64,000 nucleotides of DNA from Dyella psychrodurans (GTDB taxonomy: Bacteria; Pseudomonadota; Gammaproteobacteria; Xanthomonadales; Rhodanobacteraceae), in assembly GCF_003363265.1 (NCBI RefSeq), contig NZ_QRBF01000006.1, positions 168,110 through 232,109 on the forward strand, in the 5' to 3' direction. Positions 54,702 to 58,750 of the stretch are shown one piece after another (the first letter of the stretch is position 1; the number at the start of each line of letters is the position of its first letter). A model generated the notes under the pieces. The model was not told the DNA's origin. It was given only the letters and a program-made list of their open reading frames with translations, and did not search any database. The position numbers and the translations under genes are program-made.

Positions 54702-55118
54702 ATGTCTAACAACACCGTTCTCTATACCGCCCAGACCGTCACCACCGGTGGCCGCGACGGCCAGTCGCGCAGCAGCGACAACCGCCTGGACATCAAGCTC
54801 TCGCTGCCCGGCTCCGCCGGCACCGGCACCAATCCGGAGCAGCTGTTCGCCGCCGGCTGGTCCGCCTGCTTCATTGGCGCGATAGGTCGCGCCGCGCAGG
54901 AATTGGGCATCCGTCTTCCCGCCGACGCTTCAGTGGCCGCCGAAGTGGATCTGAACAACGCCCCCGAAGAAGGCTTCTCCATTTCGGCCCGCCTGCAGGT
55001 GAGCCTGCCGGGACTCGACCTCGCCCTCGCCCAGTCCATCGCCGATCGCGCGCACCAGATCTGCCCGTACTCGAAGGCGACGCGCGGAAACATCAACGCC
55101 GTCATCACCGCCGTCTGA
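54702..55118 (+). CDS. ohr: Ohr/OsmC-type organic hydroperoxide reductase
   Basis: 138 residues: VTTGGRDGQSRSSDNRLDIKL, GTNPEQLFAAGWSACFIGAI with the first catalytic Cys, and the second Cys in HQICPYSKATRGNINAVI. Both Cys and the Arg/Glu set fit Ohr, which reduces organic hydroperoxides with lipoyl partners. AGGAAA lies upstream. It precedes the bufferin genes by 45 bases and may be cotranscribed. Confidence 0.9.
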   Translation: MSNNTVLYTAQTVTTGGRDGQSRSSDNRLDIKLSLPGSAGTGTNPEQLFAAGWSACFIGAIGRAAQELGIRLPADASVAAEVDLNNAPEEGFSISARLQVSLPGLDLALAQSIADRAHQICPYSKATRGNINAVITAV

Positions 55119-55163
55119 GCGGCGCCCACATCTGACTTCACTCACTCATTCACGGAGACATTC

Positions 55164-55445
55164 ATGAAAAGCACCTACGCAACCATGGCCGCCGCACTGG
55201 CCTTCTCACTGGCAACGCTGGCGACCAGCGCACATGCCACGTCCAGCTCGGCGAAGCCGGCGATGGAGAAATGCTACGGCGTGGCAGGCGCCGGCAAGAA
55301 CGATTGCGCCGCCGGCCCGGGCACGACCTGCGCGGGTACCGCCAAGGCCGACTACCAGGGCAACGCCTGGATTCTGGTCCCCAAGGGCACCTGCACCACG
55401 ATCAAGACGCCGAAGGGTTTCGGCTCGCTGCAGGCCAAGTCATGA
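55164..55445 (+). CDS. bufA1: BufA1-type bufferin precursor (DUF2282)
   Basis: 93 residues: a signal peptide (MKSTYATMAAALAFSLATLA..., cleavage near AHA, residue 25) and a core with four Cys at 37, 48, 56 and 77 in the pattern EKCYGVAGAGKNDCAAG...TCAG...PKGTC, the DUF2282/BufA1 signature. Recent work on Caulobacter showed such peptides carry Cys-derived thiooxazoles made by MNIO enzymes and bind copper in the periplasm. The stop overlaps the DoxX gene (ATGA). Confidence 0.87.
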   Translation: MKSTYATMAAALAFSLATLATSAHATSSSAKPAMEKCYGVAGAGKNDCAAGPGTTCAGTAKADYQGNAWILVPKGTCTTIKTPKGFGSLQAKS

Positions 55446-55930
55446 GCTCGCGCAGCATGGAAATCGCCTCGACGAAGTTCGCGGTGAGCGAACCTCGCGA
55501 TAGCGCACCGACAACGTGGCTGTCGCGCATCGTGCCCGACAACTTGCTGCTGCTTGTCGCGCGCCTCGGCATCGCCGCCGTGTTCTTCCAGTCGGGACGC
55601 ACGAAAGTCGAAGGTTTCCTGACGATCAAGCCATCCACCTATGACTTGTTCGCCAACGAATACGCGCTGCCGCTGATCCCATCCGATTGGGCGGCGCGCA
55701 TATCGACCGGCGCGGAACATCTGTTCCCCGTGTTGCTGGTGCTGGGCTTGTTCACGCGGGCTTCCGCGCTCGCGCTGCTCGGCATGACTACGGTGATCGA
55801 AGTGTTCGTGTACCCCGATGCGTGGCCCACGCACTTGAGCTGGGCCGGCCTGCTGCTGCCTCTCGTCGCTCGCGGCGGCGGCACGTGGTCGCTGGATCGC
55901 CTGCGCCGCGGCTGGTCGCTGTCGCGCTGA
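55442..55930 (+). CDS. bufD: DoxX/HvfX-like membrane protein
   Basis: 162 residues with about four helices: LLLLVARLGIAAVFFQSGRTKVEGFLTIKPSTYDLFANEYALPLI is the DoxX core, and HLFPVLLVLGLFTRASALALLGMTTVIEVF follows. In bufferin and HvfA loci this protein accompanies the precursor and helps mature or handle the metal-binding peptide. Translationally coupled to bufA1. Symbol given by analogy. Confidence 0.82.
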   Translation: MSSRSMEIASTKFAVSEPRDSAPTTWLSRIVPDNLLLLVARLGIAAVFFQSGRTKVEGFLTIKPSTYDLFANEYALPLIPSDWAARISTGAEHLFPVLLVLGLFTRASALALLGMTTVIEVFVYPDAWPTHLSWAGLLLPLVARGGGTWSLDRLRRGWSLSR

Positions 55931-55983
55931 TCGCCGCACCAAACATCCGTTCTTTCATAGCAATTCCCCCGAGGAAAAACCCC

Positions 55984-57088: not shown

Positions 57089-57095
57089 TCGATCC

Positions 57096-57124
57096 GGCTG
57101 GACCCGCACGGCGCGGGTCCAGCC
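57096..57124 (+). terminator. Strong hairpin between precursor and maturase genes
   Basis: GGCTGGACCCGC (57096-57107) pairs perfectly over 12 bp with GCGGGTCCAGCC (57113-57124) around a five-base loop, eight bases after the bufA2 stop. No T run follows, so it may act as a partial terminator or mRNA stabiliser that keeps precursor mRNA above maturase mRNA. Confidence 0.65.
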
Positions 57125-57152
57125 CTTCACTCTTCAGTCCAGGAGCCACGCG

Positions 57153-58004
57153 ATGTCCACGTCACTATCCACGTTTGCAGGTTATGGACTCGGCTTGCGC
57201 CGGGAGCACTACCGCGACTTCCTCGACACCCGTGTGCGCGTCGATTTTGTCGAGGTCATCTCCGAGAACTTCATGGTCGAAGGCGGCCAGCCGCGCGACA
57301 TTCTTCGCCGGATACGCGAACGTCACCCGGTGGTGCTGCACGGCGTGTCGATGTCGATCGGTTCCGCCGATGGCCTGAAGACAGAGTATCTGCGCACATT
57401 GAAATCGCTGGCGGACGAGATCGAGCCGCTTTTTGTCTCCGATCATTTGAGCTGGTCTCGCATCGATCGCTTCAATTCGCACGATCTGCTGCCAGTGCCC
57501 TACACCGAAGAGGCGCTGGACATCGTCTGCGCCAATATCCACAGGGCGCAGGATGTATTGGGCCGCGCCATGCTGTTCGAAAATCCGTCCAGCTACATCG
57601 CCTTCGGCGATGCCGCGATGACCGAATGGGAATTTCTCGACGCGATGAGCAAGCGCACCGGCTGCGGCCTGCTGCTCGACGTCAACAACATTTTCGTGAG
57701 CGCCACCAATCACGGTTTCGACGCGCACGCCTACCTTCATGGCATTCCAGCCGATCGCGTGCGGCAGATCCATCTCGCCGGACACAGCGAGGGCAGCGAG
57801 CTGCTGATCGATACGCACGACAGCCCCGTTTGCGACGAGGTCTGGGCGCTCTACGCGAAAGCCATCGCGCTGACCGGGCCGGTCGCGACCATGATCGAGC
57901 GCGACGGCAACATTCCGCCGCTCAAGGATCTGCTCGACGAACTGGCGATCGCGCGGAGCATCGGCGATATCGATGCGTGGGCGCGCAAGGCGGTGGCGGC
58001 ATGA
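57153..58004 (+). CDS. bufB: MNIO-family bufferin maturase (DUF692)
   Basis: 283 residues, TIM-barrel of the multinuclear non-heme iron oxidase family. The iron ligands are in place: VLHGVSMSIG, FVSDHLSW, LFENPSSYI, LLLDVNNIFVSATN, IHLAGHSEG, DTHDSPVCDEVW and MIERDGNIPP. It modifies Cys of the bufferin precursors, by analogy with known bufferins and MbnB. Its stop overlaps the partner gene (ATGA). Confidence 0.9.
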   Translation: MSTSLSTFAGYGLGLRREHYRDFLDTRVRVDFVEVISENFMVEGGQPRDILRRIRERHPVVLHGVSMSIGSADGLKTEYLRTLKSLADEIEPLFVSDHLSWSRIDRFNSHDLLPVPYTEEALDIVCANIHRAQDVLGRAMLFENPSSYIAFGDAAMTEWEFLDAMSKRTGCGLLLDVNNIFVSATNHGFDAHAYLHGIPADRVRQIHLAGHSEGSELLIDTHDSPVCDEVWALYAKAIALTGPVATMIERDGNIPPLKDLLDELAIARSIGDIDAWARKAVAA

Positions 58005-58750
58005 AACTCGCCGATATGCAACGCGATTTTCGATCTTGGCTCGTGACCGCATCGGACGATGCGGCATCGCGCCTGAGCGGCGGCTCCAGCGCCGGGTTGA
58101 ACGTCTATCAGAACAACTATCGCGTCCAGCTGATCAGTTGTCTGGAAGCGAGCTACCCGCACGTCCGTACATGGCTCGGCGAAGAAGCGTTTCTGGCCGC
58201 GGCCATCGCCCATATCGACAGCCACCCGCCGCATGCGTGGACGCTCGACGCCTACAGCGGCGACTTCGACGGAACGCTGACGTCGCTCTATCCCGACAAC
58301 CCGGACGTGCGCGAGCTGGCGCGCATCGAACTCGCGCTTGCGCAAGCGTTCGTGGCGGTCGATGGCGATGCGCTGACGCCGGACGCGCTCGCGCAGACCG
58401 ATTGGGATGCGGCCCGGTTGCGTCTCGCGCCGTCGCTCAAGATTTTGACGGCGACGACCAATGCAGCAGATACCTGGTCGGCCTTTCAACGAAACGAAGC
58501 GCTGCCCGAAAGCCAGATGCTCGCGGAAACCGCCGGCGTGATCGTATGGCGACAGCAGTTCACTGTCTTTCTCGAAGCGGTGGATGCGCTGGAATATGCC
58601 GCGATGTTGCTGATCCAGAAAGACGGAAACTTTGCCGGGCTTTGCGACATGCTCGTGGAAAGGCTCGGCGAGCAAGAAGGCATCGCCAAAGCCGGTGCGC
58701 TGCTGGTGAACTGGATCAGCAAGGAGTGGCTGGCGGAGACGGCCGCGTAA
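58001..58750 (+). CDS. bufC: DUF2063 partner of the MNIO maturase (BufC-like)
   Basis: 249 residues. The N-terminal DUF2063 domain is clear: MQRDFRSWLV, LNVYQNNYRVQLISCLEASYPHVRTWLGEEAFLAAA. This family (BufC/HvfC) recruits the precursor peptide to the MNIO enzyme. Coupled to bufB by ATGA. The C-terminal 120 residues are typical for the family. Confidence 0.87.
   Translation: MKLADMQRDFRSWLVTASDDAASRLSGGSSAGLNVYQNNYRVQLISCLEASYPHVRTWLGEEAFLAAAIAHIDSHPPHAWTLDAYSGDFDGTLTSLYPDNPDVRELARIELALAQAFVAVDGDALTPDALAQTDWDAARLRLAPSLKILTATTNAADTWSAFQRNEALPESQMLAETAGVIVWRQQFTVFLEAVDALEYAAMLLIQKDGNFAGLCDMLVERLGEQEGIAKAGALLVNWISKEWLAETAA

What the first reader, a model, noticed from the sequence alone, without database searches (positions are those of the whole stretch)
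54702..58750. Bufferin locus with two different precursors and one MNIO maturase pair
The locus has a four-Cys BufA1-type precursor, a six-Cys BufA2-type precursor, one DUF692 MNIO enzyme and one DUF2063 partner, plus DoxX and ohr. Seen: the genes, Cys patterns, signal peptides and overlaps. Known: bufferins carry Cys-derived thiooxazoles and bind copper. Inference: one maturase serves two unlike precursors, so its specificity must be relaxed or the leaders shared.
Basis: partly seen in the sequence, partly recalled or inferred. Interest (0 to 1): 0.8.

Follow-up and report, generated by a model that had tools for sequence, protein, structure and literature searches.

The report
One maturase, two unlike copper peptides
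This bacterial gene cluster encodes two unlike precursors of predicted copper-binding peptides but only one peptide-modifying enzyme pair, which likely modifies both, and some relatives in whose genomes no other such enzyme was found carry the same set.

Summary
In detail: 54702-58750 carries ohr, a four-Cys DUF2282 precursor (BufA1), doxX, a six-Cys BufA2 precursor, one MNIO (BufB) and one DUF2063 partner (BufC). So this genome alone cannot show that one pair serves both precursors.

Relatives make it likely. Of 80 loci with the closest BufB relatives, 54 carry both precursors; 50 of these have a single MNIO. Of 46 such genomes searched whole, 18 have one MNIO in all. In the two nearest Dyella every MNIO is BufA2-paired. 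Three Duganella loci interleave one pair with both precursors. In six Erythrobacteraceae genomes without a BufA2 hit, the same enzyme lineage sits with BufA1 alone.

Best reading, biochemically untested: a shared Buf2-lineage maturase. The gene order was listed, uninterpreted, as 'Pep4' in Pseudomonas (eLife 2021), and single-MNIO genomes with several precursors are an open question in print (Antoine 2025). Verdict: conserved hybrid Buf1+Buf2 cluster, new variant of a known kind.

The parts
51751..53070 (-). histidine kinase (HAMP, HisKA, HATPase_c), divergent neighbour; candidate sensor
   Evidence: Pfam; conserved beside ohr-buf in the window plus all four Dyella loci of the scan
53067..53816 (-). 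OmpR-type response regulator (Response_reg + Trans_reg_C)
   Evidence: Pfam; conserved as above
53843..54385 (-). TlpA/ResA-like thioredoxin-fold protein, divergent from ohr
   Evidence: Pfam AhpC-TSA 2.8e-15; conserved as above
54487..54504 (+). direct-repeat motif copy 1 (predicted response-regulator site)
   Evidence: 16-base core occurs twice in the 4.54 Mb genome, both times here; conserved in five Dyella promoters; pattern chosen after looking
54542..54559 (+). direct-repeat motif copy 2 (predicted response-regulator site)
54702..55118 (+). ohr, organic hydroperoxide resistance protein (Ohr/OsmC family)
   Evidence: TIGR03561 161.1 bits, cut-off 88.85
55164..55445 (+). bufA1: DUF2282 (Buf1) precursor, 93 aa, four Cys (C37, C48, C56, C77); C48 and C56 are the predicted modified residues
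   Evidence: PF10048 4.5e-26; four-Cys pattern in 63 of 63 relatives; dN/dS 0.14-0.20 in four comparisons
55442..55930 (+). doxX
   Evidence: PF07681 1.6e-15; 4-base overlap with bufA1
   Evidence: PF12697 9.9e-17; between the precursors in 18 of the 19 loci L007-L016, L018-L023, L030, L036, L041 (not L014)
56798..57088 (+). bufA2: Buf2 precursor, 96 aa, six Cys (C45, C51, C57, C64, C70, C83)
   Evidence: NF050166 83.2 bits, cut-off 60
57153..58004 (+). bufB: MNIO (DUF692) bufferin maturase, Buf2 lineage
   Evidence: NF050167 383.1 bits, cut-off 310; tree; 3bww 2e-46
58001..58750 (+). bufC: DUF2063 partner (PME type 1)
   Evidence: PF09836 2.3e-18; 4-base overlap with bufB

Best explanation
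The array ohr-bufA1-doxX-hydrolase-bufA2-bufB-bufC is a hybrid Buf1+Buf2 bufferin cluster whose single BufB/BufC pair likely converts cysteines of both precursors to thiooxazoles, giving two peptides predicted to bind excess copper in the periplasm. Shown: the genes, their family membership, their order, their recurrence in other genera, the Buf2-lineage origin of BufB, and genomes in which no other MNIO was found. Inferred: BufC recruits each precursor, BufB oxidises the two central Cys of BufA1 (C48, C56) and probably the four central Cys of BufA2 (C51, C57, C64, C70), and both are then exported by their signal peptides. DoxX would assist, as in other bufferin clusters, in a way not known. 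Ohr and the TlpA-like neighbour suggest a joint response to copper and oxidative stress, predicted to be controlled by the divergent two-component system through the repeat motif upstream of ohr. In this particular genome the Buf1-type pair on contig C1 may also act on BufA1.
For: Of 80 loci with the nearest BufB relatives, 50 carry both precursors with one MNIO and 4 (Luteibacter) carry both with a Buf1-type MNIO too. Of 46 genomes with both precursors and no Buf1-type MNIO at the locus, 18 (13 isolates, 5 MAGs) have one MNIO in the whole assembly, and 28 have a single DUF2282 gene, the one at the locus; BufA2 is over cut-off in 12 of 12 of those 18 that were searched for it. D. lipolytica (BufB 96% identical) has 3 MNIOs, 3 BufA2 and 1 DUF2282, D. 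dinghuensis 2, 2 and 1, and each MNIO lies right after a BufA2. Three Duganella loci (L023, L030, L036) run bufA1-bufC-doxX-hydrolase-bufA2-bufB, one pair interleaved with both precursors. Six Erythrobacteraceae genomes have one MNIO, no BufA2 hit, and this BufB lineage beside BufA1; their BufBs nest among two-precursor BufBs (sister L048, SH-aLRT 98). BufA1 keeps its four Cys in 63 of 63 ORFs and evolves under constraint like BufA2 and BufB.
Against: The window's own genome holds a Buf1-type MNIO/DUF2063 pair (about 1 kb from a second BufA1, with NrsF genes around it) that could modify this BufA1 in trans. Many two-precursor genomes hold further MNIOs (28 of 46). Drafts and MAGs can miss genes. 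In most sphingomonad loci bufA1-doxX is divergent from bufA2-bufB-bufC, not co-directional. The residue after the catalytic Asp, published as a selectivity site, does not track BufA1 presence. No chemistry or expression was measured.
Confidence: 0.68

Rival explanations
1. In this genome BufA1 is matured in trans by the Buf1-type BufB/BufC pair on contig C1, while the local pair handles BufA2 alone; the cluster is only a co-regulated pair of bufferins.
For: A Buf1-type MNIO and DUF2063 (L005:5128-6881) lie about 1 kb from a second BufA1-DoxX, with NrsF genes around them, and the tree separates this MNIO from all BufB2-type rows (SH-aLRT 100).
Against: The nearest relatives D. lipolytica and D. 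dinghuensis keep the same cluster with no MNIO other than BufA2-paired ones, and 18 of 46 two-precursor genomes have one MNIO in all.
Confidence: 0.17
2. BufA1 of the hybrid cluster is not modified at all and works as a plain cysteine protein; only BufA2 is a substrate.
For: Antoine et al. 2025 name this alternative for genomes with several precursors and one MNIO pair (passage seen).
Against: The four-Cys pattern is kept in 63 of 63 ORFs; six Erythrobacteraceae genomes keep the MNIO pair with BufA1 and no BufA2 hit, which would leave the pair without a known substrate.
Confidence: 0.12
3. The neighbourhood is a chance or hitchhiking union of two independent operons, without functional coupling.
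For: In most sphingomonad loci the two halves are divergent, and in Luteibacter they are two complete sets side by side.
Against: The same order recurs in Dyella, Pseudomonas, Paraburkholderia, Duganella and others, three Duganella loci interleave the halves, and 28 of 46 genomes have no other DUF2282.
Confidence: 0.03

Closest known systems
Buf1 and Buf2 bufferin clusters (Antoine et al. 2025, PMC12452194)
   Same: Precursor families, MNIO, DUF2063 partner and DoxX; four- and six-Cys cores. The paper mentions clusters with tandem precursor genes and genomes with several precursors and one MNIO/PME-type-1 pair.
   Different: The passages I saw treat Buf1 and Buf2 clusters separately and do not describe a Buf1+Buf2 hybrid with a shared Buf2-lineage pair or a hydrolase gene; figures and supplements were not seen.
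'Pep4' cluster of Pseudomonas fluorescens group (eLife 2021, PMC8719888)
   Same: Same gene order: DUF2282 peptide, DoxX, hydrolase, short peptide, DUF692, DUF2063 (passage).
   Different: Listed as a putative cluster with no function given in the passages seen; the second peptide had no family; a further hydrolase is listed after DUF2063.
Captophorins: fontiphorin FonABC, Buf2 'Cys-Lys' and DUF2282 groups (Gadgil et al. 2026, PMC13097082)
   Same: MNIO plus RRE-bearing PME1 partner that installs 5-thiooxazoles; DUF2282 and Cys-Lys precursor groups (sections read).
   Different: There each MNIO is discussed with one precursor group; FonBC did not process peptides with a charged residue after Cys, so specificity can be tight.
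Luteibacter double clusters (L062, L064, L068, L069; this work)
   Same: bufA1 and bufA2 in one array on one strand.
   Different: Each precursor has its own MNIO/DUF2063 pair; L078 retains only the Buf1-type DUF2063 and lacks the Buf1-type MNIO at the locus.

Membership tests
Buf1 bufferin (DUF2282) | PF10048 match and four conserved Cys | tested here: met
   4.5e-26, 91 bits against 22.4; four Cys (for relatives)
Buf1 bufferin (DUF2282) | Sec-type signal peptide | not tested
   seen by eye in the translation; no predictor run
Buf1 bufferin (DUF2282) | own Buf1-type MNIO next to it | tested here: not met
   the only MNIO at the locus is Buf2-lineage; the Buf1-type one is on contig C1
Buf1 bufferin (DUF2282) | Cys-derived thiooxazoles and copper binding | not testable with these tools
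   needs mass spectrometry and metal assays
Buf2 bufferin (BufA2) | NF050166 over cut-off and six Cys | tested here: met
   83.2 bits against 60
Buf2 bufferin (BufA2) | Cys-Lys motifs | tested here: met
   three of the four central Cys are followed by Lys, the third by Ala
Buf2 bufferin (BufA2) | thiooxazole modification | not testable with these tools
   also not identified chemically for Buf2 in the literature passage seen
MNIO bufferin maturase BufB | NF050167 over cut-off | tested here: met
   383.1 bits against 310; His/Glu/Asp/Asn motifs align with 3bww
PME-type 1 partner (DUF2063) | DUF2063 domain encoded next to the MNIO | tested here: met
   PF09836 2.3e-18; 4-base overlap with bufB
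Cys-Lys MNIO selectivity signature | Asp after the catalytic Asp (BufB2-Asp251 of the paper) | tested here: not met
   Gly in the window BufB, Asp in both BufB2 paralogues of the genome; the site does not track BufA1 presence

The most novel reading that the evidence does not exclude
A Buf2-lineage MNIO/DUF2063 pair has become a dual-family maturase: across Dyella, Pseudomonas, Burkholderiales and sphingomonads one enzyme pair matures a four-Cys DUF2282 precursor and a six-Cys Cys-Lys precursor of different family, and in Erythrobacteraceae it has switched to BufA1 altogether. This would be a natural example of a RiPP maturase crossing between precursor families, with its intermediate states preserved in Luteibacter and Duganella.
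Probability: 0.55. Interest if true: 0.68.

Novelty: new variant of a known kind. Interest (0 to 1): 0.52.

Why it matters
Whether one MNIO pair can mature several different precursors is stated as unresolved by the group that described bufferins (passage). This lineage makes it testable: genomes in which one MNIO was found with one BufA1 and one BufA2, loci where the pair is interleaved with both, and loci where BufA2 is gone. If true, specificity lies in a feature shared by two precursor families, which would guide engineering of thiooxazole peptides and explain how precursors are gained and swapped.

Tried and rejected
Selectivity residue: I expected the residue after the catalytic Asp of BufB to mark dual-specificity enzymes (Gly in the window, Asp in the genome's other two BufB2). 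It does not: Asp in 40 of 63 rows with BufA1 and in 9 of 19 without, and the independent-pairs test is not significant. It leans with the residue after the third Cys of BufA2 (Lys: Asp in 27 of 29; not Lys: Asp in 17 of 45), but only 3 independent pairs on supported branches exist, too few to test.

Hydrolase fold: the AlphaFold model had mean pLDDT 43.2, so no fold search was run. By sequence it has one weak match in the PDB (5y57, 7.5e-4). BufC had no PDB sequence match.

Promoter/terminator scan of 54350-58950: no sigma-70 match, and 3 terminator-like sites against 4.3 expected; uninformative.

Plasmid search: 18 records match, none over at least 80% of the query; the best listed covers 32%, the bufB-bufC part, at 74% on a Cupriavidus megaplasmid without annotation. 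13 of the 18 records were not listed. Not pursued.

Rows handled apart: of the eight 'A1 only' loci, L017 is a copy in which a deletion seems to have removed most of bufA2 (its genome has another copy with BufA2) and L045 is a MAG with BufA2 on another contig; the six-genome argument uses the other six, of which one (L061) is a named isolate and the others uncultured or MAG records. Several A2-only loci end near contig ends, so that class may be overcounted. L021 and L036 were not held for whole-genome search. The BufA2 model was run on 31 genomes, not all 66. The locus scan kept the best 80 of 232 relatives, so the counts describe the nearest BufB relatives, not all MNIOs.

Novelty searches: (open-access library only; listings beyond the shown rows were not seen). 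The original bufferin paper was not seen; its results are taken from PMC12452194 and PMC13097082.
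Full report
What is there. Between 54702 and 58750 on the + strand lie seven genes: ohr, bufA1 (DUF2282), doxX, an alpha/beta-hydrolase-like gene, bufA2, bufB (MNIO) and bufC (DUF2063). Gaps are 45, 53, 49 and 64 bases, with 4-base ATGA overlaps at bufA1/doxX and bufB/bufC, so one transcript is plausible but not shown. BufB aligns with the solved MNIO 3bww across the conserved His, Glu, Asp and Asn motifs.

The genome around it. The window lies in a 4.54 Mb genome (16 contigs, 99.95% complete by the tool's own estimate). It has four MNIO genes, three BufA2 over cut-off and two DUF2282 genes. Each BufA2 is followed by its own MNIO and DUF2063 gene: the window, C1 (L005:14150-16077) and C11 (L006:3889-5981). 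The fourth MNIO (L005:5898-6881), with its DUF2063, lies about 1 kb from the second BufA1-DoxX, and three NrsF genes lie at L005:927-1571, 4426-5097 and 7021-7719. NrsF is a mark of Buf1 clusters in the literature (section read).

Relatives. A scan of named genomes with the window BufB gave 80 loci, the best of 232. I mapped each with phmmer and, for 22 loci, tblastn. Labels by genes within 4.5 kb: both precursors and one MNIO 50; both precursors plus a Buf1-type MNIO 4 (Luteibacter); BufA1 only 8; BufA2 only 18. In most sphingomonad loci bufA1-doxX is divergent from bufA2-bufB-bufC; in Dyella, Pseudomonas, Paraburkholderia, Massilia, Duganella, Undibacterium and Cupriavidus bufA1, bufA2 and the maturase genes share one strand. 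In Duganella L023, L030 and L036 the order is bufA1-bufC-doxX-hydrolase-bufA2-bufB, so the one pair is interleaved with both precursors. Luteibacter sp. L078 has bufA1, a Buf1-type bufC, doxX, bufA2, bufB and bufC but no Buf1-type MNIO at the locus; its genome has a second MNIO beside a second DUF2282.

Whole-genome counts. 66 genomes behind these loci were searched for MNIO and DUF2282 (recount); two loci (L021, L036) were not held. Of 46 genomes whose locus has both precursors and no Buf1-type MNIO, 18 have one MNIO in the assembly (13 isolates, 5 MAGs by record title), and 17 of these 18 have one DUF2282. 28 of the 46 have a single DUF2282. The BufA2 model was run on 31 genomes; 12 of the 18 were among them, and all 12 had one hit over cut-off. 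D. lipolytica has 3 MNIOs, 3 BufA2 and 1 DUF2282, and D. dinghuensis 2, 2 and 1; each MNIO starts 103 to 131 bases after the end of a BufA2 match. Against the reading: 28 of the 46 genomes have more than one MNIO, and several of these, like the window's genome, have a DUF2282 gene next to another MNIO (for example G005 C19, G016 C4, G018 C12).

Tree. In a quick IQ-TREE of 88 MNIOs the five Buf1-type rows (the C1 enzyme and four Luteibacter) are split from all other rows with SH-aLRT 100; the window BufB groups with D. lipolytica (99) inside a group of 70 rows (support 92) that holds all rows with BufA1 nearby, plus seven BufA2-only rows; the other 13 BufA2-only rows lie outside it. The six BufA1-only Erythrobacteraceae rows sit inside this group next to L048, which has both precursors (98). 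Their genomes have one MNIO each and no BufA2 hit. The simplest reading, an inference, is that a Buf2-lineage pair was linked to BufA1 and that BufA2 was later lost in these bacteria while the pair was kept.

Constraint on BufA1. The four-Cys pattern is present in 63 of 63 BufA1 ORFs (the pattern is my own and loose). Between the window and four Dyella loci, dN/dS is 0.14-0.20 for bufA1 and 0.08-0.35 for bufA2 (from the dN and dS).

How it would work. By the literature (section and passages read), the two central Cys of Buf1 become thiooxazoles, the outer two form a disulphide, and the product binds copper in the periplasm. For Buf2 the paper reports similar mass loss and a 305 nm band but no identified chemistry. 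Gadgil et al. show for FonBC that flanking residues limit which Cys is processed, so one pair serving BufA1 (C48 followed by Ala, C56 by Ala) and BufA2 (three central Cys followed by Lys, one by Ala) is not trivial. The window BufB has Gly where that paper reports Asp in Cys-Lys MNIOs; both other BufB2 of the genome have Asp. This is suggestive for the window, but across 82 rows the residue does not follow BufA1 presence, so I do not use it as evidence.

Surroundings. The divergent HK-RR-TlpA genes are conserved beside ohr-buf in the window and the four Dyella loci of the scan, and ohr, TlpA, RR and HK homologues (in that order, one strand) also lie downstream of the Massilia polaris locus L017. 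The region upstream of ohr has two copies of a repeat (54487, 54542) that is conserved in the five Dyella; its 16-base core occurs nowhere else in the genome. I chose the pattern after looking at the sequence, so the chance estimate is optimistic. A role for the OmpR-type regulator is a prediction.

Hydrolase. It lies between the precursors in 18 of the 19 loci L007-L016, L018-L023, L030, L036 and L041 (not L014), is truncated in L017, and was not seen at the sphingomonad, Luteimonas or Luteibacter loci. The nucleophile position varies: Asp in the window and three Dyella (GSDYGG), Ser in Pseudomonas and Duganella (GHSSGG), Gly in L019 (GDGYGG), while His232 and Asp206 are kept in 19 of 19. Its role is unknown; a non-hydrolytic or altered function is possible.

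Known or new. Antoine et al. 2025 mention tandem precursors and genomes with several precursors and one MNIO pair, leaving open whether all are modified. An eLife 2021 appendix lists the same order as 'Pep4'. In the library searches made I saw no paper describing the hybrid cluster as a shared-maturase system; only open-access papers are held, and figures and supplements were not seen. I therefore call it a new variant of a known kind.

Noticed in passing
window 55984-56748; L007-L041: The hydrolase-like protein conserved between the two precursors has a changing nucleophile position (Asp, Ser or Gly) but an invariant His232 and Asp206; it may be an altered or inactive hydrolase.
   Followed up: partly
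window 51751-54559: Divergent histidine kinase, OmpR-type regulator and TlpA-like protein are conserved beside ohr-buf in five Dyella; the two repeats upstream of ohr are the only copies of their 16-base core in the genome.
   Followed up: partly
L017 (Massilia polaris), about 7575-7990: The 5' part of the hydrolase gene runs into what looks like the 3' tail of bufA2, consistent with a deletion that removed most of bufA2 while bufA1, doxX, bufB and bufC remain.
   Followed up: partly
L005:14150-16077 and L006:3889-5981: Two further BufA2-MNIO-DUF2063 clusters in the same genome; the one on C11 has a DoxX-like ORF on the opposite strand upstream.
   Followed up: no
L005:927-1571, 4426-5097, 7021-7719: Three NrsF anti-sigma genes around the second Buf1 cluster (PF06532 in all three).
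   Followed up: partly
window 60447-61397 (-): ORF with an RHS-repeat-like core (YDPEAGRFLSVDPVG) and an HNH-like C-terminus, possibly a polymorphic toxin end; judged by eye.
   Followed up: no
74 BufA2/BufB pairs: Where the third BufA2 Cys is followed by Lys, the residue after the BufB catalytic Asp is Asp in 27 of 29; otherwise in 17 of 45. Too few independent changes to test.
   Followed up: partly
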